From Omphalotus guepiniiformis (lineage: Eukaryota; Basidiomycota; Agaricomycetes; Agaricales; Omphalotaceae): a stretch of 64,000 bases of DNA. Made by a program: the position numbers and the translations under genes. Shown piece after piece: positions 10,601 through 56,659 of this stretch. The stretch is from assembly GCA_028554645.1 (NCBI GenBank), contig JAQOOI010000078.1, positions 434,001 through 498,000 on the forward strand. The letters are read 5' to 3'. The first letter of the stretch is position 1; each line of letters starts with the position of its first letter. The notes beneath the pieces are model-generated. The model did no database searches. It had not been told where the DNA came from and saw only the letters and a list, made by a program, of their open reading frames with translations.

Positions 10601-13600
10601 ACACCCCAAAAAGAAACGACTGAAAGCGCATATACGTCGCTCACGCGACACAAAAGGAGCGTATGCATCTAGCAGGTATCTAGGACACACTGGAAGCTTG
10701 GTGCAACCCGTGGGTCTCAGTCTTGTCCATATCAGCACGTAGCCATTCGAAGCTGCGGACGTTGTCTATCATCATCGTTGCCCGCGACGAAGATGAATAC
10801 TTGGCTAGACAAGTACTAAATGTAGATTCAGCGCGCCGCACACGACGGAAGAAGAGAACAAGAAATCAACCAAATTAGATGATATCGAATCAATTCGGGT
10901 TTCCTCGCATCTTCAGTGGCAATAATATGTACATCTTTTTTTCGAAAGGGTAATGAAATGTACTTGAAGCACGTTACAAGTCAATCAGAGTGAGATGATG
11001 CTCGAGCGAACTGTGTAACTTATCAAATACTCAGCTCGAGGTACATAGCTGTCATGAAACTGAAATTTACTCACCTTTCGAATTACATCCACAGAATTGA
11101 TTCAATGATTTGATCTATCATCTCGTACCTGGGCCTGGAGAGGAGAGGGTAGTGAGAGGGTGCACTAAAATGACTCTAGTAGCATCGTGCCAACTGAGCG
11201 TCGCCGTCAAACTTGAGCTTGAGCTCCCGGTAAGATGGGCCCTGGGCATAACGGTAACCCATTCTGGATTCCTTCCCCGGGCGACAGGTACAGCAATTGC
11301 GAGTTTTCGTTTGTAAGGCCTTCCACAAGTTCCTAGGACATTTCCGCTCAGCTGTTTCACCCGTTGCGAGAAGAGATGTATACACCGTTCGTACGTGCTG
11401 AAGTAGAAGCACTCGAATCGATTCCGGATATCCTTAGACGTGTCAAGACGACGAGAGTCGCCTGTCGTGGCGGAATTCCTAGGCAATTGTAATCGCGGCC
11501 CGGAGATTTCATAATACTCCTAATTTAGCAACCCGCGTCGGCTGTCGCGTGCAACGCCTTGCCTTCGGACCATCATCCTACTTACTACTACTTTATGTAG
11601 CAGGTTTACAGATCCAGTAAGCGCTAAAGCTCATCGCGAGCATTAACTGATGCGTGTGCCTTCTTACCTACTTGCATAGATACACTTGTACTGCAAGATC
11701 CGTCAAGAATGGAATTCGAACCGCCACCGTTGAGGCCGCACAATGTGTAGAATCTCAGTATACTGTTGGCATTGCCGCGCCAAGTATGAGCTGGATCAAG
11801 TCCATCCAAATCATTCAAACAAACGGAAAGCTTTTCATCGAATGTATACGTAGACCGGGCTACTCTGGACTCTGAAGTACAAGACTTAACCCTGAGACGG
11901 AACGGGACTCGTAGTATTACGCCAGAGCTTGACACCTTCAATGTTCGAGTTTGCGGTCTCAAATTTCCGCTAGCGAAGTGAATACATGGCTTACTTCACT
12001 CATGTACCCTAGGATCGAGGTCTACGAAAGCGCTACACGCATATATGCGTACATGCATACGTGTTTACCCTGGGTTTCACCCGCACGGCGAGAATGTATG
12101 CAAGGCTTTGCCTTACCAGGCTTCGGCGGGATTACCTAGGGCTATTCGGAATCTCAAAATCGGGACGTTTCGTTTCCAGTCAAATGGACGGCTGAGCGCT
12201 TCGGGGTGCTGCGCCGTTTTGTTTCGGTCTGGTCACTTGCTGCTCCGGCATGTACGGTTTTTCATACCATGAGGCTCATGCTAGGCATACTGACAACACG
12301 AAACGAGTTGGCTGATTGCTGTCAACGGGTCAAGTCAAAGTATTTGTCTTTTCGAGCAAACTCTGACTTAGTGGTGCGGAACGGGTAGGTGTTGTACATG
12401 CATGTATGCGTGTCTGATTGGTGATGGATTGGATTAGGCTTGGGAGACTTACTGACCTTACAAGCAAGTTACATAGTGACACCTCAACTTAACCTCAACC
12501 TAATCTGGAAACAAGATTTCAATTCCAGTCTCCGTAACTCGCATCTCGAGTTCGAGTTCCGCTTTTTTTATTGGTGGAGTCTTCAACCCTCTTTGATTCT
12601 GTTCCGATTTACTTAGTACATGCTGTAAGGACAGTTTCAAAAACGTCCCAACGACCAATACTGTTATCATAATGTCCTTTTGCGTCATACAGGTTGGGAT
12701 TATGTACGTCAAGTATTCATTCACTCACTCATCATAATCATTTGTCTTACTTACCCATTTAGCTCGACCTTACCCTGCAGTGTTTGAAAGGCGAGTTGCT
12801 TATGTACTAAGTACCCACATTGTGCATTGTGACACTATATGCTACGCTACGCTACTAACACCGGTACGTTGCGTTGCCCCTCAATGCTCATTTATTAGGA
12901 ACCTGATGCACCTAGAGGGCTAGAACGCGCTTACAGCGGCACTATTCATATACATACATACTTAAGTAAGTATGTTCCGTTGAAAGAGAATCAGAAATTG
13001 GGGATTACTTAATACACGTTTCTAGCGAGGGGCGAGCGGCTACCAGCTACATATGTAACTTACCCAGCTCGCTGCTGTAGACTGTTGGACACAGGTATGA
13101 TCACTTTAGTCGTTTACCGTTTGGGTTTCCCCGTCCGCGTGTTAATTGTCAATTCAATAGAGGTCCGGAGTGCATCGCAGGATTCCTGTGTAATGTACTA
13201 CTACGGCCGATTTGACGGGGCGGGAAGGGGATTAACACATCATGATTGCACCGTTTTGTTTTGCACCAGCCCCAAGAAGCCTCAAGACCAGGTTGAGATT
13301 CGTCAGGACTGATGTCGTAATGGGAGCAGAGAATAAGGGTCACGTAGTCTGTAGACGGTAGAGTGTCTCCTCCGTCCACCGGTGAATCGTTACTGATTGG
13401 CCCCGGCGTTGAATGTGGAATGGTAAAGGTTCCATAGTGTATGCAGGGGCCTGCTGCCTGTAACTCCTGGCAGGTAAATCCCGCTGAACGTGAATCCGAA
13501 AACCTGGCCTTTGGCTTGAGTTAAGTAAACGTGACGTGGCTCTCAAGTTACCTCGAGTAATAGTGTAAGTATGTAACTATTCTAGTGCGACACAGCACGG
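4652..13600. other. 9-kb region without a recognisable gene
   Basis: No open frame here resembles a known family, and no chain of exons with good splice sites could be built. From about 4880 to 6100 the plus strand is rich in T and C, which fits a long promoter or leader for the cyclin gene on the minus strand. Further on are scattered (GTAA)n and (TATG)n runs, for example near 7793 and 8192. Lineage-specific small genes or non-coding RNAs cannot be excluded. Confidence 0.45.
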
Positions 13601-13805
13601 TGTGGTAGTATCTACCGAATACTCACTGATGCACTATATATTTTTACTTACTTACTGCCAGGTAGCATCAGCCCTTTGAAATCTATCAATGGCGCCCGTC
13701 TTGTGTGGTATTATCTACTGAGTACTCACTGATGTTCTATACATTTTTACTTACTTACTGCCAGGTAGCATCAGCCCTTTGATTTCGTATCAATGGCGCC
13801 CGTCT
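13601..13805. repeat. tandem duplication, unit about 103 bp
   Basis: Two head-to-tail copies, 13601-13701 and 13704-13805. Both contain the same core (ACTTACTTACTGCCAGGTAG, then CATCAGCCCTTTGA) and end in TCAATGGCGCCCGTCT. They differ by a few substitutions and one small indel. No coding sense is apparent. The duplication lies about 230 bp outside the left inverted repeat of the integrase/kinase element. Confidence 0.9.
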
Positions 13806-14037
13806 TTTTTCTGTCATATAACACGACCAGTATATAAGATGGATATAAATCTACTTATGGTGCAGCTACAGCCCGCGGCGGCACATTCAATCTGAATCTA
13901 GAAGGGTACCATAGTCAAAGTTGCCTAGGGGAGACTAATCTGAATCGCAAGATGGGCGCGAATCACAATGAGACCATTTGTTCCGAATATGTATGTTGTT
14001 GTTGGGATGTTAATTCCGCTCGGCGCTCAGCGCCTAT

Positions 14038-14067
14038 GGTTGGCGGAAGTCCACGGCAGACTTTTGC
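14038..14067 (+). repeat. left inverted repeat of integrase/kinase element
   Basis: Begins GGTTGGCGGAAGTCCACGGC and continues AGACTTTTGC. Its reverse complement is found at 19566-19595 with 29 of 31 aligned columns identical and two single-base indels. A chance match of this length in one window is very unlikely. Confidence 0.85.
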
Positions 14068-14248
14068 ATTCGTACTGCGGAGTCCGCTGTTCGGACGAAG
14101 GTGCCGAGCGAGCCACGTGTACTCGTATCTCAGTTCGCATGCACATTACTGACATCGAGTCTTGACTCATTGCTATCGACTGCCACAACCGTGAACTGTA
14201 TTATATCTAGCTGAAGATGTCGTGCAATAGCAAATACAATACACCTAG

Positions 14249-15899
14249 CTAAGCCTGCTTTAGGGCACTAACCATGGACGAGAAGATACTCCAGCCTGCT
14301 TTCAGCTCCAGGATAGGTTGGTGGATTGTGATGTATGCGGCCTGGGCAGCAGTGTTGAACTCCTCATCAACCCATCGCATAGCGTCCTCTCGAGAAACCG
14401 GAATCTCCCCGCGAAGTGCATCAATAACAAACTTATCTACATTTATTCGACATTCCTGGGCTCCTTGTGATTCAGGGACAGTGAAGGCGTGTCTCGGAGT
14501 AGCACCCGACATGTTTGGCTTCTTTGGCTGATATCGAATCTTGTGGTTATTCCAATATTCTACAAACTTGTCCAATTCGAGTTGAAGAATCTTGGGCCAA
14601 AGCCAGTAGAATAATGACCTGCGTGGAGTGAGTTCAGCATCATCACTGTTAGTATCACGACATAATCAACTTACACATGCACCACATCGTTGGGATTGTA
14701 GAAACCTCGTGTGTAACCTTCTCTTATAATATCTTTGGCGTTGATTCCACAGTAATCTGTGAACCAATGCCACAGACCCTCAATCGGGGTGTTGTGAACA
14801 CTACGAAGATGTTGCACTGGTGGGAACCGATCTTCGTCTAAATCAGAGGCATATGATTGCCTAGTAAGATATGTCAAAAAAGTGATGGGACATAACAGTC
14901 AGAGCTTGCATGCAGTGACATACCGCAAAGCTGTTTGGTTGGCGAAGATGTATCCAGTCTCTGATCCCTTGTCCACCACAAACGTGATAGGAATAACTGA
15001 GAAGGATTGTTAGAAATTGGTTGCGAGGCACTTTTATAGACGCACATCCGTATTGTTCAACACAGTCTAAATGAACATGGCCAATTGTTGTGGTGAGGCG
15101 ATTGTTCGGCACCACAACCAGCAGTAAAATGAAGGAGGACCACTGATCTTTAATTCCGTAGATATTGAGACCAACACCACCCATCTGTAGTGCTTGAGCG
15201 TTGAGCTTTTCATGTCCATCTGCATGATGTTGGTAATTAGGCCCAACAGCCACCAATGCAGAACGTCGGATGCGGTTGGCACCCGGAAATCGAGCTGCAA
15301 GTCCTTCGGAGCATGCTGTTGCCAGAATCTTACGGATGAAATCCCTGTGGTTGGTTAGATATAGTGCTGAATAATTAGAGTGATTTTGCGTACCTAGGAA
15401 GAGAAATGCCTTCATTACTGAGCATTGTCCCAATTGTGCCAACACCTCTTCTCTGAGCTGGATCTTCAGCTACCTTTTGAAGTACAGCAACTGTTGCGAT
15501 GTCTTCAGCAGGTGGTTTCCGAACACTAGGTACATTGTATTTTTTATTTAGCTTATGAAGCAAAGATTTCCTAGATGACGGTATTCATTAATCAATCAGA
15601 ATTACATGGAGTTGTGGAGAAGAGATGTGCTCTCAACGTTCATTGTGAGGGGATGAATCATACATTTGAATTGACTCACTTGCACTCAAAGCCTAAATCA
15701 GCACGAAGTCGCTGAAGGCGCTCCTCTACTGACAGACGCTCCTTAGCATACTGATGAAGCGCTTGTTGCATTTTCTCGTCTGAAGGGTCTAGATAGAATC
15801 AATAAAACAAAGTGCAAGCTCGAAGCAAATAGAAATGTATAACTTACAGTTCTTTCTCCCGTACTGATTTATACCTATCGGATTGTTATTGCTCATCAT
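14249..15899 (-). CDS. integrase-core (DDE) domain protein, probable transposase
   Basis: A multi-exon gene starting MMSNNNPIGINQYGRKN, followed by a short helical region (MQQALHQYAKERLSVEERL) and KSLLHKLNKKYNVPSV, a likely DNA-binding segment. The catalytic core has the DDE pattern: ADGHEKLNAQALQMGGVGL (first Asp), FVVDKGSETGYIF (second Asp) and SVHNTPIEGLWHWF (Glu). This order is typical of the integrase-core proteins abundant in agaricomycete genomes. It ends SMVSALKQA. The coding exons seen are about 15845-15899, 15688-15788, 15395-15570, 15060-15344, 14934-15010, 14675-14860 and 14249-14620. None carries a stop or frameshift, so the gene may be functional. The transposon class is not certain; it should catalyse strand transfer at the ends of its own element. 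It lies 343 bp downstream of the kinase gene. Confidence 0.85.
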
Positions 15900-16241
15900 T
15901 GAGAACAAGGGTCAGAAGAGTGTTCAAGGTCAAGGTGTACTGTGAAACGTATAACAAACGAACTTAAGAGCGAGTCAGTCAAGATTGAGGTCTTAAGTAG
16001 TGTTGCGCTTGCACTACTCGTGGTGGGGCTGACATGTGGAGGCTTGAATGAGGTAACAACTGCTTTGAAGGATGTAATATCTGTCTTTAATCTAAATCAA
16101 ACTAGGCCTTGCGGCAGTGAATGAATAATGGAGAACAGTGAAACCTTCGATTAGCACATTTTGTGTATGTTACATTTTACATATCAGCGTGCACGAAGGT
16201 AGGGTACAAGAAAGGTTACAGTGGGAATGTATGGCAGTGGC

Positions 16242-18700
16242 TCAGTCATCCTCGTCTTCATTCTCGTTTTCACCTTGATTCAGCTCCTCGTTATCTGCAG
16301 CGTGGTCAAGAGACAAAGTTTCAAGACCCAATCCAGTACAGATGTAGTCACATTTATGTTGGCTAGTAAAGGTGTCGATACCTTGACGTCCATGATCTCC
16401 GATGCCAGTGTCCCTACAAATTGTAAACATCTTGACTAACATCATTATTGGCTTAGTAGTACTCACCCTTCAATTGAGTGAGTCATGAGATCAAATAAAA
16501 TAATTGCATCCTTTCCATTCACTGGCATTGGCGAGCCTATATGCATAGTAAGTAAGTGTAACACATTACGACAAAACACAATACCTTGTATGTCAGCAAG
16601 AACACACTCCTTTTTATTTTGCTCAAAGAAGTAATGAGCAAACGCGCTCAGCGTGATTCCCGTTTTGTCCGTATGCGACGGATGAACAAGAGTTCCGCTG
16701 AACTTCTGCACGGACTTTGTGCGTCGAGGCTCAATCAACCAAAAAGCCTGGTTGATGTCTTCATGTCCGAGTCCAGAAGCCCTAGATGGAAATCCAACCT
16801 CCTGAACTAGATCTCCATCTGATACATATATATCTGGAGTATATATTAGAGTCAAACTGTGTTCCGTCAACAGAAGAAGACAACATACCATGAGCAATCT
16901 CGACGCCCTCGCGTTGAGCAAGCTCCTTGAATTGACTCAAAAGCCACCCAGTTTCCTTGAGCCGTATAAGCTCTAAGGTGAGAAATGTTTTGTTTTGTTC
17001 GGCTGTCACGGCACCGACTCCACCTGTGTTGAAGAACCGTTTCGCAACGAATAGTTTTTTGCCAAGAACGAACTAAGATACTCAGTCAATAGTGTACTGT
17101 AAAGTGAAAGTAAACAGATGGCCACCTTATAGATATACTTTGTGTTTCCAGACGAGATAACATCCTGTCCAATGAAAGCATCTTCCGCAACTTCACTGGT
17201 ACTAGTAGTCCACATGATGTCGACTCCACCATGATCCTCTGCTTGTATGACTTGTGCTTTAAGGACCTGGACAGGACTAAGTGCTGCTTCACCAGGCGGT
17301 TGACGCGGCATCCTAACGAAGGTCGACTCAAGCGGTCCTGCCATACAATAGCCATAAACATCAGACACAGAAGGTACTTTATAATTACAAACTCACCGCC
17401 CACAGCTGAACGGATTCTTTTCGAGGTTGACACTGTACTGACAGCGGAGTACAGTGAGTCACTACCTCCACGTTTATGAACTCGCTCCCCTCGTACAATT
17501 TCCTTTCTTTCCAAAAACTAGAATAAATTAATGAGATCCCAATTGCAATACTATAAGAACAGAATTCAGACCGCTGGTTTATTGATGAAGAGCTCCATTG
17601 GCAACGAAAGCCTGTCATCTTTTCTCTTCTTCTTCTTTCCATTAGCTTCACCAGGGTTGTAAAAGGAAGCTAGATCGCCAGTCATGTATCTTTGATACAC
17701 CTCACCAACTGTCATTGAGCGCGTTCCCGCAAGAAGTACCTTATTTCCAGCGAAGCGGAATTCTACTTCATCTCTAACAGAAAGAAAATGTCAACCGCAG
17801 TTTCATCCATTTGCAAATGATGACTTACTTTGTCAGCGACATTCCTTCATCTTTCTCCCACCCGACATTGAGTGTTGTAAGTGCATGGTCCAATACCTCT
17901 GACATATATACTAATACGTGAGGAACAGAGGCTACTGAGAAGCAAAGACATGAATACGGACCTGACATATAGGTGTCTGGCTCCCATGGGTGGCCCCACT
18001 GTCCACAGTTGATATCAGTCGATGCAGATTCACGCTTGGACGTGCTCTTCAAACGACATGCAACAGGAACCAGAATCTTCCCATCTGGGTTTGCAGTGGC
18101 AGCGGCGACATTTTTGGCAGCACTGAGTCCTGACGTTGTGTGCAAATGACTTGGTGCTCTATTGAACCGAGCGTCGATAGCATTCGCTCGAGCAGCGCGC
18201 GAAGCTTCAACTGCATTTTGCTGCAAAAGAGATCGCGCTGCATCTTGACGTGCTACAAACAGAAGTCATACAAATGGAAATGCGTAACATAATAATGATC
18301 TTTACCCTGCGCATCCAACTCGCGTTGAGAAGCCGTAGACACTATAGATGCTGAGTACTCCGAAACAGGTCATATCTGTATCGTTAGTCCATACCATGGT
18401 GTGGTGTATCAGCGAGAGCTTGGCATAAACCGCATGGTGTGCTGCCATCATAATGTTTTGAGGTCCCCCCACAGTCCTTGCACTGTTTCCAACACTGAAA
18501 GACAAGAGTGCACGTATTAGTACTGCAGCACCAGAAAACCAGCTTCATATACAACGTACCTTGCACTGCTCATACTCAATTGAATCAGGTTTCAGGCCTT
18601 CGAGTTTCTCGCATTTAGCGCATAGGCCTGCCTTCGTTTTGTTGTGAAAGCGTTTGAAACAGCCATCGCCTGTGTTGTTCTGGCAGATTGTTGAATCCAT
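16242..18700 (-). CDS. alpha-type (MHCK/EF2K family) protein kinase with Cys-rich N-terminus
   Basis: About twelve exons and about 610 residues. The N-terminus is a likely zinc-binding region: C-x7-C, then CAKCEKLEGL, CKCWKQCKDCGGTSKHYDG and PCGLC. A linker rich in Ala/Arg/Gln follows. The C-terminal alpha-kinase domain shows the ATP-site lysine region (GKKLFVAKRFF), ECVLADIQG, the PMPVNGKDAIILFDLMTHS segment, GDTGIGDHGRQGIDTF, and the zinc core HKCDYIC (His plus CxxxC) that holds this fold together. It ends in an acidic tail (ENENEDEDD). Alpha-kinases phosphorylate Ser/Thr, often within helices; the substrate is unknown. A splice-compatible upstream exon (MLYMALLSCYAIQREK..., ATG at 18882) could extend the N-terminus; I kept 18700. 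Together with the integrase it lies inside an inverted repeat. Confidence 0.82.
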
Positions 18701-19565
18701 CGTCAATGCTGAATTCCAGCGAGAGGGAAAAGCAAGAGTGAAAGCAGGGTGAAATTGAACCTATCCTCACCGTACAGTTTATATACCGCTTGTTGTTGCT
18801 CGAGGTCAAAAAATTTGATATCCGCTGTACGATGTTTCTCCCGTTGTATCGCGTAGCACGATAGCAAGGCCATGTAGAGCATTTCACTGCTATTGTCCAA
18901 TAAAAAGTTATTCAATGTATGCAACGGAAACCGATTAGCACGCACGCACCTTCCTCAGCATCTCCGAAAGTGTGTTGGCGTTAACAACTCCTTACATATT
19001 ACTGGCGTACTCGGTTGATTAATTGACTGAACCATAGTCCCGCCGTTTCACTTCGCTATCCTTGAGGTCACTGGACATTTATAGAGGTTGGAGAAGGTCA
19101 ACATGAAGACTCATAGCATAGGCAACATACCATTTACTACAACTCTGAGCACGCAGAAAATCCAATGATTATACAAATACATGCAACCTGAGGCTAATAT
19201 GCTTTGAGCTTATGCCTTGCCGATGTGATCCTCCTTTGCGACGTTTGCGCACTTCACATTGTCTTCAAGAATGAAGATGGCATATAGATTGACAGCTAGA
19301 GATCTCAGCGCAAAACATATCTAATGAGAAAAAATCGTTACTCACCTCAATGTAACACTCACTGGAGATGTCTATGAATGGTCAGTAGTGTGCGCCTCAA
19401 TTCTCTCACAAGCTCATGCACTCAAAGACAATACTCGGGAAGGTAAGACGTAGAGTTTATTGGTGAGGTGATGAAAGTGCCAGCAAAGCAATGCGTAAAC
19501 TCGATATCGACACGTGTCGAGTTCGATAGCCACGGTCCGGTCCGGGTAAAGGCATTTCGCTCTTC

Positions 19566-19595
19566 GCAAAGTCTGCCGTGGACTTCCCGCCAACC
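19566..19595 (-). repeat. right inverted repeat of integrase/kinase element
   Basis: Reads GCAAAGTCTGCCGTGGACTT then CCCGCCAACC on the plus strand, the reverse complement of 14038-14067 except for two single-base indels. Confidence 0.85.
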
Positions 19596-19965
19596 TCAAG
19601 CGCCCCCCCTCGGAAACTTACTCAGACTGTTGCTGTTGGTGCGTGGCCAGGCGCTGGTTCGCGAGTGATTGAGTTACTTGATGTAGGAGAACAGCCAGCT
19701 CATGATTGTCTGAATTTCTGATTTCTGATTCTGGATTTCGGTTTGAATCAAGGGACCGGGAGATGGGGGTGATTAACCGTTTTGATTACTGTGTATGGTT
19801 AAATGTTACGTATCAGTACTGTAGTCGTCTGCGGCAGGCTATGGTCCACGTTTTGGCGTTGCGAGCCCCTCAATTGCAAGGCCTCCGAAGGCTAGGCTTG
19901 ACAAAAACCTGTGATGAGCTTGAGGTCGGTCCTCTACCTCGAGCGCTCTCCTTACACTGTTGACT

Positions 19966-21222
19966 CGGAATTTCGATTGGTATGAGTCTGGAGTGCGATT
20001 GTGTTCTCGTCAATGATATTTCATACTTACACTGTGTCTTTCAAGATTGTATGGGTATTCGTTTGTTGTTGTTGGCTGAAATGTTCATCCCCCTCTCCGG
20101 ATTCAAGTAAAGTATATGGTACGACGATACACAATACACGGAGAGTCGATTGTTGAGCCCGACTAATCGCTAGCGGTACTTGTTGTACTTGTTAGCTGAG
20201 ATATCATCACTTGAGATACGTATATTATATCAAGTAAGTGTAGGTACGTACCTCTGATACAGTCCACATAAGTACCAATCACAACATCCCCTGCCCTCCG
20301 CAGAGCGCTGAGCACCGAGCACCGAGCACCGAGCTCCATGTCATCCATCACATTAGTCAATTGAGTGTAAGGGCGTACCTCTGATACATCATGTATATGA
20401 TACAGTCCACAATCACAACATCCCCTGACCTCTGCGGAGCGCTGAGCGCTGAGCACCAAGCACCGAACTCCAAGTTCCTTCAATCTCTGTACCTCCGTAT
20501 TTCGACTGGGCCACAAGTGTCCTCCATGCTCCTCCAAGGTAATACGCTGGAAGACCGTGGCAGACGAGGTTGCCGTGAGCGGCGAGGATCAGGAGCATTA
20601 TAAAAACAAGCTGGGCGAACTTGAACTCGTACTTGGCCGCGGGGACGAATCCGCTCGCTATATAATATATACTCTCACCTCCAGTGCTCGATCCTCTACC
20701 TCTCCTCAACATTGTGTGGATCGAGTTTCGACTGGTACGAGTCCGGAGGTGTGTCTCGTCAATGAGATTTCACACTTACACTGTGTCTTTGATTGTATGG
20801 ATCCTCGTTTGTTGTTTGTTGGCTGAAATTTTCACCCTCCTCTCCGAATTCAACTTGAAGTAAAGGTAGGTACGACGATACACGAATACACGAATACACG
20901 GAGAGTCGATTGTTGAGCCCAACTAATCGCTAGCGGTACTTGTTATACTTGTTAGCTGAGATATCATATTTAAATACGTACCTATTATATCATGATACAG
21001 TACGTACCTCTGATACAGTCCACATAAGTACCAATCGGCCCACAACATCCCTTTCCTCTGCGGAGCACCAACACCGAACTCCAAGTTCCTTCGATCTCTG
21101 TACCTCCGTACCCCGACTGGGCCACGAGTGTCCCCCTATGTTCCATCAGGAAGATACTGAAATAAGCTGGAAGACCGTGACAGACGAGGTTGCCGCGAGT
21201 CGCGAGGATCAGGAGCGCTATA
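19966..21222. repeat. degenerate tandem repeat, two large copies
   Basis: Copy A (about 19966-20595) and copy B (about 20722-21222) share a long ordered series of blocks: TTTCGA.TGGTA.GAGTC, CTTACACTGTGTCTTT, CGGAGAGTCGATTGTTGAGC, CTAATCGCTAGCGGTACTTG, CTCTGATACAGTCCACATAA, CTCCAAGTTCCTTC and GACAGACGAGGTTGCCG. Copy A is longer because the section with GAGCGCTGAGCACC is itself partly repeated (about 20280-20340 and 20405-20470). No open frame is conserved between copies, so this is probably non-coding repeat DNA. Confidence 0.85.
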
Positions 21223-22689
21223 AGAAGTCAGGCGGGGACGAATCCGCTCCCTACAGTATAACATACGAGTAACTATGGTTGAATATCACCTCCAGTGGTG
21301 CGCTTACGAGGTACGTACGGTACGGGATCACTTTGACCTCAAGCTGTCGTATCCTCGAGTCCGAGTTCGATTTTCTGTATACGGTACACAGTACATTTAG
21401 TCTGTCAATCGGGACGGTAGGGGATATATCTAGCTGGGATGTCGCGAAGTCAAGTAAGGTAAGGTAAGTAAGTAAATAAGTAGATGAATACATACCTTCT
21501 ACTAGATCCCTGTGATATCAAATACTTACATCGAGCCCCACCCCACCCAATCTACATAGGACCAAGGGTCTGCGTTCCTTCGAGCGAGTACAGACTATAA
21601 TCGCCGTTCGTTCGAGTTTTGAGTCCTCCGAGCCCGCTCGTATACCCAGCTTGATGTACTTCCGGAACCTTCAAACCCCTACTCTCCAAGGATACCGTTA
21701 CCCTCCCTACCCTCCCTTAACCTGTTGAACTTAAAGGTTTGTCTGCACCCCGCCGAGTACGAGTCTGGGGCTGCGTGGCACACGTCACTCGTCTTCGGGT
21801 CGATTTATTTTGGCATACGATACGATACGATACAGCGTGGTATATCTGAATCTGAGTCTCGTTATTGACTGTGTTGAAGATGATTGCTACTTAGTATCCT
21901 AGATCAAGTAGGTAAGTAGGTAAGTAAAACGATACATACATGCATGATACACATACGTGATATATGATACATAGTCCCCCAGAGCCCTAGTATCATACCA
22001 TACCTACGACTTCCCTTCAAGCACCATTCGACTCCAACCTCTCCTCTATCAAAAAGCCCTAGGTCGCCCGAGTATCCCTCCCTCTCTCCCTTGAGCCTTC
22101 TCTTACACACCCCGTTCTCTTATCGGGGACGCGCTAAGCAGTAATGTGATGTGAGTCTGTCTGACCCGGAGCTAGGACAACAGAAGGGAATGTAGAGAAG
22201 TAGACCACAAAAAGTAGGGAAGCGCGCGCGGGGCGATGGAATGACCTTAGGACTCGGGACCTGGGGGACATGACTTGGAGATGTGGGTAGGGAAAGAAGT
22301 AGTGACTGTAATACTTCAATTTGAGCTTCATAAAAGCTTTAATGAAACGTTGACGAGGTCGTTCGGCGCTCAGTGTGCACGATTAGCGAGTAGAGTTTAG
22401 ATGGTGAAAGAGCCATGCCGTGCTTTGTGTATGAGAGGTGCCGGTGAAGTTTTGAAGTAAAGTAGTAGAGGCATAAGTAGTCTAAGAGAGAAGATCTGTT
22501 CAAGTTTTTGGTTTCGAATAGTGCCAGTGAATTACGTAAACGCCTCACGTGCACCTAAGTGGCCCGGCCTCCCGTCTCCTTAACTTTAACTCACACTGTA
22601 TACACTACTCTCGAACCTCGAACGGCCCACGACACAGAACACCATCGAAACAAAACAGCACTGTATCTGTATCTGTATCATATCATCTA
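21223..22689. other. intergenic, no gene recognised
   Basis: Holds (GTAA)n and (GGTAA)n runs near 21455-21480 and 21905-21930 and a (GATAC)n run near 21815-21832. The last few hundred bases are the likely promoter and leader of the GPALPP gene. No supported coding region. Confidence 0.5.
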
Positions 22690-54771: not shown

Positions 54772-56659
54772 TTACAAGAACCAATCAAGAAAACTTCCTC
54801 CCCTTCGCTGATTCTTAGCACTACCACCATTATTTCCTTCTAACCAGCCCCAGAATCCTCTCCGGTCTAAAGAAGAGTCCGTATCGTCGTCTGCAGTTCC
54901 ACTGCTGCTTCCTCCATCATTCAAAGACAAACTTGAAGTAGGAGTGGCCTGGACGAAACCACCCGACGCGGTGACAGTAACAGTAACAGTGACTACGGAA
55001 GGACTCTCATCACCAGTGTCTGGATCACTGGGGTCAGCACCGTTGTCGGGGTCGCTGGGGTCAGCACCATTGTCTGGGTCACTGGGGTCAGCACCGTTGT
55101 CGGGGTCGCTGTCGGGATCGCTTGGATCAGCACCATTGTCTGGGTCGCTGGGGTCAGCACTGTTGTCTGGGTCGCTGTCTGGGTCACTGGGGTCAGCACT
55201 GTTGTCTGGGTCGCTGTCTGGGTCACTGGGGTCAGCACCATTGTCCGGGTCACTGGGGTCAGCACCGCTGTCGGGGTCGCTGTCGGGGTCGCTGGGGTCA
55301 GCACCAGTGTCGGGGTCGCTTGGATCACCACCATTGTCGGGGTCACTGGGATCACCACCATTGTCCGGGTCGCTGGGGTCACCACCATTGTCAGGATCGC
55401 TTGGATCACCACCATTGTCCGGGTCGCTTGGATCACCACCGTTGTCCGGGTCACTGGGGTCACCATTGTTGGGGTCACTGGGGTCAGAACTATTGTCGGG
55501 GTCACTAGGATCAACACCAGTGCCGGGGTCACTAGGATCACCACCATTGCCAGGGTCGCTGGGATCACTGGGATCACTGCCAGTACCAGTGGAACTAGGA
55601 TCAAAAGCACCCGTGTTTGTAGGATTTTGACCCCCAGTCCAAGTGGGATCGACGTTTAGAGTCGAAACAGGTGGATCTATCACAACACTTGTGGTGTGAG
55701 AATGCATAGGTAGACCGCTGACCTAGAAACAAGTCAAGTCAAATCAGGACCAATACATCATATGCTGAACAGGACATGACACTGACATCTGATGGACCAG
55801 GAAATCCGCTAGACACCCCTGAATGGCCAGTTATGAGTGCACCACTCGATGTATGTACCGAGGATGCAGAATGTGATGGCTTCAACGAGCCCGTTAGCAC
55901 CCCTGTCCCAGAGCTGCCAGATAGTGGTAGTACCGACGTTCCAAGATGACCGGACAAACTAGAAGGGCTCAAGCTCGTCGGCAGTGATTTGTGAGTCGTA
56001 GTTCCACCGAGACGACCGGGCACGCTAGAAGGTATCGAGCTCGTCGAAAGTGACCCGAGAGTCGAGGTCCCACTCTTGCTGATTATGGGTCCTAGCAGAG
56101 AGCTACTCGGTTTGAGAAGAGTGTTGGTAGGTTTAAGCGGGGTGGTACTCGGTTTGAGAGGGGTGTTGGTAGGTTTAAGCGGAGTGTTACTGGGTTTGAG
56201 AGGGGTGTTGGTAGGTTTGAGAGGGGTGTTACTGGGTTTAAGAGGGGTTCCAGTAGGTTTAAGCGGAGTGTTACTCGGTTTAAGAGGGGTGCCAACGGGA
56301 GGCTTCGATGGGGTCGGCGTTGGTTTCTTAGGAGGAGCAGGAGCAGGAGGAGGATTCTGCTTGGACGGGGTCGGCGTTGGGTTTTTGGGAGGAGGAGCAG
56401 GAGCAGGAGGATTCTGCTTGGGCGGGGTCGGCGTTGGTTTTTTGGGAGTGGGAGGAGCAGGAGCAGGAGCAGGAGCAGGCGGTGATTTCGGCCTGGGTAG
56501 AGAGGGACCCCTACTCTTGCCTCTGCTGCTCAAGGCGAGCGGCGCAGAACCACTGCCTGACCTCGCGACGGAGCGCTTGTCCTCAAAGTTCCCTAAGGGA
56601 GCGGCAGAAGTCATGGCTGACAGGGCCAAGACGACAGGGAGAAGAGTGGAAGTACGCAT
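54772..56659 (-). CDS. large secreted Pro-rich / DPSDPDNG-repeat protein
   Basis: Two exons, 55787-56659 and 54772-55722, giving 607 residues of strongly biased composition. A signal peptide (MRTSTLLPVVLALSAMTSAA) is followed by an APAP/PKKPTPTP-rich stretch, about a dozen NTPLKPS/TPLKPT repeats, and a Ser/Thr/Gly-rich spacer. After the intron, some twenty DPSDPDNG/DPSDPDSD units form an acidic rod. A short hydrophobic Val/Thr stretch (VVTVTVTVTASGGF) and a C-terminal module rich in Trp, Gly and Arg (GFWGWLEGNNGG, SFLDWFL) close the protein. No enzyme domain is visible. It looks like a cell-wall or matrix structural protein, perhaps heavily O-glycosylated; this is inference from composition. 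I do not recognise a named family. The long opposite-strand frames here are by-products of the repeats. Confidence 0.8.
54966..55590. repeat. coding minisatellite (DPSDPDNG units)
   Basis: Units mainly of 24-27 bp, for example GGGTCAGCACCATTGTC(T/C)GGGTC on the plus strand, with some 36-bp compound units where GGGTCGCTGTC is added. Neighbouring units are nearly identical, so copy number probably varies between strains by slippage or unequal exchange. Confidence 0.85.

What the first reader, a model, noticed from the sequence alone, without database searches (positions are those of the whole stretch)
14038..19595. Integrase and alpha-kinase genes enclosed by one inverted repeat: a possible kinase-carrying transposon
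A 30-bp inverted repeat (two single-base indels) brackets exactly two intact-looking genes in the same direction: a DDE integrase-core gene and an alpha-type protein kinase. Weaker similarity continues inside the repeats (an ACGTGT core and CGCAT on both sides). If the repeats are the element's ends, the kinase is cargo, or the kinase helps regulate transposition. Either would offer a mechanism for the spread of alpha-kinase genes in mushroom genomes. Seen: the repeat, the gene order and the open frames. Known: integrase-core genes are numerous in Agaricomycetes. Inferred: mobility and cargo status.
Basis: partly seen in the sequence, partly recalled or inferred. Interest (0 to 1): 0.88.

Follow-up and report, generated by a model that had tools for sequence, protein, structure and literature searches.

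The report
Fungal transposon carrying an alpha-kinase gene
A stretch of fungal DNA is a genuine jumping gene that carries its own cut-and-paste enzyme together with an unusual protein kinase, and in this genome each alpha-kinase gene detected has a gene resembling that enzyme close by, so the kinase is probably part of the jumping machinery rather than a passenger.

Summary
The inverted repeat is real and bounds a 5,564-bp DNA transposon, 14035-19598, flanked by an exact 6-bp target-site duplication, AGCGCC. It encodes a 421-aa DDE transposase (PF24764) and a 615-aa alpha-kinase (PF02816), both on the minus strand. Closely related ends bound 14 short non-autonomous copies, nearly all with 6-7 bp duplications; some are almost identical, so the family moved recently. 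The nearest known kind is the IS3EU/GingerRoot superfamily; rust members that carry a TET gene were reported in 2025 to hold transposase plus alpha-kinase. This element departs from the published type: ends TA..CA instead of TA..TA, genes in the same direction, no TET gene. New here: all 7 alpha-kinase loci detected in this genome lie within 3.5 kb of an integrase-like gene. Five are inside elements with IS3EU-like ends; two (related to each other) lie beside a diverged integrase-like gene with no ends found. Gene orientation differs between families, and kinase and transposase diverge in step across five pairs. The kinase is therefore most likely a working part of the transposon; its substrate is unknown.

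The parts
14029..14034 (.). left target-site duplication AGCGCC
   Evidence: exact match to 19599-19604
14035..14064 (+). left terminal inverted repeat, begins TATGGTTGGCGG
14114..14119 (.). subterminal CACGTG, starting at nt 80 from the left end; function unknown
14249..15899 (-). DDE transposase (integrase core, PF24764), 421 aa, 7 exons: 15848-15899, 15680-15788, 15394-15570, 15046-15344, 14924-14996, 14675-14860, 14249-14618; presumed catalytic D155, D221, E264
16242..18700 (-). alpha-kinase (PF02816), 615 aa, 12 exons: 18560-18700, 18395-18494, 18306-18341, 17962-18252, 17829-17898, 17572-17773, 17397-17517, 17126-17337, 16889-17072, 16585-16833, 16467-16536, 16242-16413; N-terminal cysteine pairs
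19511..19516 (.). subterminal CACGTG, starting at nt 83 from the right end; function unknown
19569..19598 (-). right terminal inverted repeat; read inward it begins TGAGGTTGGCGGGAAG
19599..19604 (.). right target-site duplication AGCGCC

Best explanation
14035-19598 is an autonomous-looking DNA transposon of the IS3EU/GingerRoot type. Inferred from relatives: its DDE transposase recognises the roughly 30-bp ends, possibly with the CACGTG boxes about 80 bp inside, and joins them to target DNA cut with a 6-bp stagger. Shown: a 6-bp duplication flanks it, and closely related ends have been multiplied in short non-autonomous elements. The alpha-kinase is an inherited, selected component of the element, not a recent cargo capture. 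It most likely phosphorylates the transposase or a host chromatin or repair factor so that transposition occurs or escapes silencing. That last step is inferred only.
For: Exact AGCGCC duplication. 34 genome hits to the end sequence against 0 for the reversed control. 15 paired elements at 12 distinct sites: 9 exact 6-bp duplications, 1 with 5 of 6, and 2 with an exact 7-bp one read by eye. Near-identical copies, 1-6 differences per about 1 kb within three subfamilies. D221 invariant, D155 and E264 nearly so, over 20 sequences, the window's included. Predicted fold of the Laccaria homologue (pLDDT 88.6) finds TnsB, IstA, Mu and retroviral integrase complexes. 7 of 7 detected alpha-kinase loci lie beside an integrase-like gene, 5 of them inside elements with TA-type ends; the same integrase queries gave no hit in 48 kb from 16 loci chosen without regard to kinases. 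Counting from integrases found without regard to kinases, all 4 closest relatives have the kinase and 0 of 18 other PF24764 loci has one detected (Fisher 1.4e-4). Four gene arrangements keep the pair. Co-divergence r 0.99, exact Mantel 1 of 120. A Sphaerobolus gene model seems to run from a kinase C-terminus into an integrase (P0101; kinase match 15.8 bits, below the 21.3 cut-off).
Against: The right end is TGA, not TAY as in published IS3EU. The element shares only 47 bp (87-89%) at the left and 28-32 bp at the right with the short copies, so their actual mobiliser could be a lost or unassembled relative. It is the only full copy in the assembly, and no empty site was found. No expression data. 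Two of the seven kinase loci (C63, C16; related to each other) have no recognised ends, and their integrase-like frames are only 18-28% identical to the queries (best E 2e-9 in a search of about 28 kb); the one scanned had no Pfam match. C73 and C60 are 97.5% identical copies, so the seven loci are about five independent lineages. For other species I know only that contig lengths agree, in 4 of 6 kinases. Co-divergence is also expected from plain common inheritance.
Confidence: 0.82

Rival explanations
1. The transposon is real, but the kinase is passive cargo picked up from the host genome.
For: Transposons of fungi do pick up genes: TET/JBP genes are said to be passively transferred between transposon families (PMC12730594, section 25).
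Against: 7 of 7 detected kinase loci are near an integrase-like gene, linked transposases occur in separate deep branches of the transposase tree, orientations have been rearranged while the pair is kept, divergence is matched and catalytic positions are conserved.
Confidence: 0.15
2. The element is immobile or domesticated, and the short copies were moved by a different transposase with similar ends.
For: Single copy; its ends differ from those of the short copies at several bases; two indels between its own ends.
Against: Both spliced frames are open, the presumed triad is intact and the target-site duplication is exact. Of the 15 paired ends, only this pair encloses more than 2.5 kb, and the 11 short copies tested hold no match to either protein. 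One single end and four more distant hits were not examined for coding sequence.
Confidence: 0.25
3. The repeats are a chance pair or two separate short elements that happen to flank host genes.
For: The end sequence is dispersed in the genome.
Against: One left-type (TAT) and one right-type (TGA) end in the right order, with an exact shared duplication outside them, and beyond the ends no match to the 11 short copies compared.
Confidence: 0.02

Closest known systems
IS3EU / GingerRoot DNA transposons (Repbase superfamily; PMC10045372, passages seen)
   Same: DDE transposase without a conserved N-terminal HHCC motif, 6-bp duplications, left end TA, ends alignable with those of two local elements that end TACGG..CCGTA
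TET+ IS3EU families of rust fungi (Kojima 2025, PMC12730594; abstract, sections 13 and 25, passages seen)
   Same: transposase plus alpha-kinase in one element, 6-bp duplication, TATGG at one end
   Different: no TET/JBP gene; transposase and kinase in the same direction, not opposite; asymmetric ends
Elements C73:94588-100252 and C60:133290-138964 of the same genome
   Same: transposase and alpha-kinase, TIR pattern, 5.7 kb
   Different: ends TACGG..CCGTA, convergent genes, transposase about 36% identical over the C73 pieces compared
Styx of Zymoseptoria (PMC10853768, passages seen)
   Same: transposase linked to IS3EU there; DNA transposon with extra genes
   Different: in the passages seen no alpha-kinase is mentioned as an element gene

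Membership tests
IS3EU/GingerRoot | 6-bp target-site duplication | tested here: met
   AGCGCC exact; of 12 distinct sites of the family 9 exact 6 bp, 1 with 5 of 6, 2 with an exact 7-bp duplication read by eye (their fixed 6-bp comparison scored 0 and 1)
IS3EU/GingerRoot | TA..TA termini (TAYGG..CCRTA in TET+ families) | tested here: not met
   left TATGG fits; the right end is TGAG here and TGAC in the 14 short copies. GingerRoot is reported to be mostly TA..TA and occasionally TG..CA (PMC10045372). Therefore described as a variant close to IS3EU, not filed as a canonical member
IS3EU/GingerRoot | DDE transposase core without upstream HHCC zinc motif | tested here: met
   D155, D221, E264 conserved; no invariant or nearly invariant His or Cys before residue 150 in 20 aligned sequences
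IS3EU/GingerRoot | transposase groups with IS3EU/GingerRoot in a tree | tested here: inconclusive
   no Repbase sequences at hand; in a 92-row tree it lies with Agaricomycete homologues, and C73, whose element has canonical ends, is a distant row of the same tree
TET+ IS3EU of rusts | alpha-kinase gene in the element | tested here: met
   PF02816 78.5 bits, cut-off 21.3
TET+ IS3EU of rusts | TET/JBP gene between the two genes, which face opposite ways | tested here: not met
   342 bp between the coding sequences, same strand; none of the 7 TET/JBP matches of the genome lies on a contig that holds one of the seven kinase loci
alpha-kinase | catalytic Lys, Asp-x-Gln and zinc ligands (roles recalled) | tested here: met
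   K406, D537, Q539, H582, C584, C588 (numbers of the first, 619-aa model; four lower in the 615-aa model) invariant in 7 sequences, the window's included; a profile of the six homologues matches MHCK-A at 2e-11 and eEF2K at 7e-9

The most novel reading that the evidence does not exclude
In mushroom-type fungi the alpha-kinase is basically a transposon gene: a constitutive second subunit of IS3EU-type elements, needed for or licensing transposition by phosphorylation, so that the alpha-kinase expansions in fungal genomes are counts of these transposons rather than of host signalling genes.
Probability: 0.45. Interest if true: 0.78.

Novelty: new variant of a known kind. Interest (0 to 1): 0.62.

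Why it matters
A kinase kept beside a transposase through deep divergence and repeated gene rearrangement suggests a phosphorylation step in transposition; an element-encoded kinase of this sort would be unusual among eukaryotic DNA transposons (from memory, not searched). It also gives a simple, testable cause for alpha-kinase expansions in fungi: a 2015 paper calls the family highly expanded in rusts (PMC4469406, passage). With open genes, defined ends and many short substrates, the element is a convenient test system.

Tried and rejected
Chance repeat: rejected (an earlier version of this control counted palindromes, reached 22 nt and is not used). A first search with a pattern that allowed no indel found only the window's own left end; the pattern was used instead. 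A first scan for ends at C73, C60 and C71 found none because the fetched stretches were too short; longer ones gave the ends. Empty site in the same genome: none; only the two window flanks and a tandem duplicate of part of the left flank matched. The kinase structure prediction ran but had low confidence (pLDDT 44.2) and was not used. A profile search for further kinases gave nothing new. IMG/VR scans for kinase and integrase gave no relatives. C63 and C16 were searched for terminal repeats; none enclosing the genes was found, only a TACGG-like pair near C63:857 kb and a long inverted repeat around C16 that does not resemble IS3EU ends. I first expected C65, C63 and C16 to be host kinases without integrase; one search showed an integrase-like frame at each. 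A Fisher test of 7/7 against 0/18 is circular, since three of the seven integrases were found by looking beside kinases; I cite 4/4 against 0/18 instead. The 18 loci are my own grouping of the 43 matches, a search that misses diverged members (it missed the window's own transposase). The tree label test for kinase-linked rows showed no clustering (7 changes, shuffled mean 6.8): linkage occurs in several deep clades, and the neighbours of most rows are unknown. Papers: (alpha-kinase with transposon, transposase, transposable element or expansion) gave one paper, PMC12730594, in which I saw the pairing; the other papers of these lists were seen as listings, apart from passages of PMC4469406 and PMC5295586. 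Of the 35 papers that name IS3EU, 30 were listed, and of these I looked into passages of five; IS3EU is already annotated in mushroom genomes (Ganoderma, PMC8955403; Phlebopus, PMC12411881), where neither paper mentions alpha-kinase. Subscription papers are largely not held.
Full report
What is there. The window is bases 434001-498000 of contig C75 in an unnamed 42.5-Mb assembly. The 20-nt perfect core of the inverted repeat exceeds anything in 300 shuffles, where the longest was 16. The repeat is about 30 bp with two indels. Outside it stand two copies of AGCGCC. The element is therefore 14035-19598, 5,564 bp. Inside, on the minus strand, are an alpha-kinase (16242-18700, PF02816 78.5 bits, cut-off 21.3) and, 342 bp downstream, a transposase (14249-15899, PF24764 37.6 bits, cut-off 26). 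The kinase has an N-terminal cysteine-rich stretch of unknown role.

The ends mark a mobile family. A search for the end sequence with up to 3 mismatches gave 34 hits and 0 for the reversed control. Of these, 29 belong to 15 paired elements, the window element being one; its left end carries a deletion and is missed by that pattern, which is why 29 and not 30. One hit is single (C60) and four belong to a more distant end type; these five were not examined further. The 15 elements sit at 12 distinct sites, since C1, C4, C13 and C15 share one flank. Nine sites have an exact 6-bp duplication and one matches at 5 of 6. At the other two (C78 and one on C22) the fixed 6-bp comparison scored 0 and 1, but the flanks show an exact 7-bp duplication, which I read by eye. 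All 15 carry one TAT end and one TGA end, so the asymmetry is a trait of the family and not a mutation of this copy. Within three subfamilies the short copies differ by 1-6 bases in about 1 kb, so they moved recently. They share only 47 bp at the left (87-89%) and 28-32 bp at the right (91-93%) with the coding element, and the 11 of 14 that I compared hold no match to its proteins. The coding element may thus be their mobiliser or a close cousin of it. CACGTG lies at 80 and 83 nt from the two ends of the element and at 69-84 nt from the right end of the same 11 short copies, but not within 200 nt of their left ends.

The transposase. Over 20 aligned sequences, the window's included, D221 is invariant and D155 and E264 are nearly so. 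The model of the Laccaria homologue (68% identical; pLDDT 88.6) resembles the TnsB, IstA and Mu transposases and retroviral integrases, the best at E 8e-6 with low TM-scores (0.2-0.3 by the query), probably because domain arrangements differ. A sequence-profile search of solved structures found no transposase. The best 120 of 130 homologues were listed; those with an organism name are Agaricomycetes (classes recalled).

The kinase is a standing partner. The family search found 7 alpha-kinase loci in the genome, a lower bound because genes are matched exon by exon. The window pair is one. C73, C60 and C71 have an integrase relative about 400 bp from the kinase match, in convergent orientation. 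C65 has one 2.4 kb away, divergent. C63 and C16 have a diverged one 3.0-3.4 kb away on the same strand. The queries gave no hit in 48 kb from 16 loci chosen for the short copies and not for kinases. Ends were then found. C73:94588-100252 and C60:133290-138964 have TACGG..CCGTA, with a 5-bp duplication and one of 5 in 6 bases, both read by eye. C65:2707473-2713942 has TACGG ends with exact CGAGAA. C71, about 11 kb, has a TACGG/TACAG pair with 5 of 6, read by eye. C63 and C16 have none, the C63 integrase frame gave no Pfam match, and these two are the weak part of the count. C73 and C60 are 97.5% identical and C63 and C16 are related, so the seven loci stand for about five lineages. Seen from the other side, without looking at kinases first, the four closest integrase relatives (window, C73, C60, C71) all have a kinase, and 0 of 18 other PF24764 loci has one detected; the nearest on the same contig is about 209 kb away (Fisher 1.4e-4).

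Other species. Six kinase homologues were found. Four share species and contig length with an integrase homologue: Gymnopilus 271558, Lentinula 143133 and 27339, Crepidotus 128959. One, Lyophyllum, has its listed integrase on another contig, and for Panaeolus none was among the 120 listed. Same contig is not proof of adjacency. A Sphaerobolus gene model, named an alpha-type protein kinase by its source, seems to run from a kinase C-terminus (15.8 bits, below the cut-off of 21.3) into an integrase (P0101). For five pairs (window plus four) transposase and kinase identities correlate at 0.99, exact Mantel 1 of 120, and the unrooted trees agree. Common descent alone could give this, so it shows absence of swapping rather than function.

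How it compares. PMC10045372 (passages) gives IS3EU as TA..TA with usually 6-bp duplications, joined with GingerRoot in one lineage. PMC12730594 (abstract, sections 13 and 25, passages) reports TET+ IS3EU of rusts with 6-bp duplications and ends TAYGG..CCRTA, and states that all of them carry a TET gene between transposase and alpha-kinase genes, which face opposite ways. So the pairing itself is in print, and IS3EU is already annotated in mushroom genomes (PMC8955403, PMC12411881; passages). What I did not find in print with the searches is the pair without TET, the same-direction arrangement with TA..CA ends, or the observation that a genome's detected alpha-kinases all lie near integrase-like genes. 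Because TA..TA was tested and not met, I call this a variant close to IS3EU and not a canonical member.

Mechanism. Shown: ends, duplication, open frames, related mobile copies, repeated pairing. Inferred from the family: end recognition and 6-bp staggered strand transfer. Conjecture: the kinase modifies transposase or chromatin. The pair being kept while gene orientation changed argues for a working partnership, since mere inherited linkage would be expected to decay.

Noticed in passing
G000:C63:859-868 kb and C16:630-638 kb: Two loci about 65-69% alike in their longer aligned stretches, each with an alpha-kinase, a diverged integrase-like frame and a long open frame (692 and 837 codons, stop to stop); a 712-aa part of the C16 frame and the C63 integrase frame gave no Pfam match, and no terminal repeats enclosing the genes were found. 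Possibly another element type.
   Followed up: partly
G000:C65:2707473-2713942: A 6.5-kb IS3EU-type element with exact duplication CGAGAA and divergent kinase and transposase; 14 related end hits elsewhere pair by position into 7 short copies of 0.75-0.82 kb, not fetched.
   Followed up: partly
G000:C22:2422586-2425036: A short copy of the window family carrying an insert of about 1.4 kb of unknown type.
   Followed up: no
window 18703-18954: An 83-codon open frame just upstream of the kinase inside the element; could be an extra exon, a small gene or chance.
   Followed up: no
window 13600-13806: A 103-bp tandem duplication just left of the element.
   Followed up: no
window 20005-21260: A set of segments repeated about 600-760 bp apart just right of the element, mostly 86-100% alike.
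   Followed up: no
window 55007-55568 and 56104-56469: Tandem arrays with units of 27, 21/42 and 57 bp (multiples of three), as in repeats within a coding sequence.
   Followed up: no
G000:C46:181495-181911: One TET/JBP match above cut-off in the genome (six weaker ones); none is on a contig with an alpha-kinase locus.
   Followed up: no
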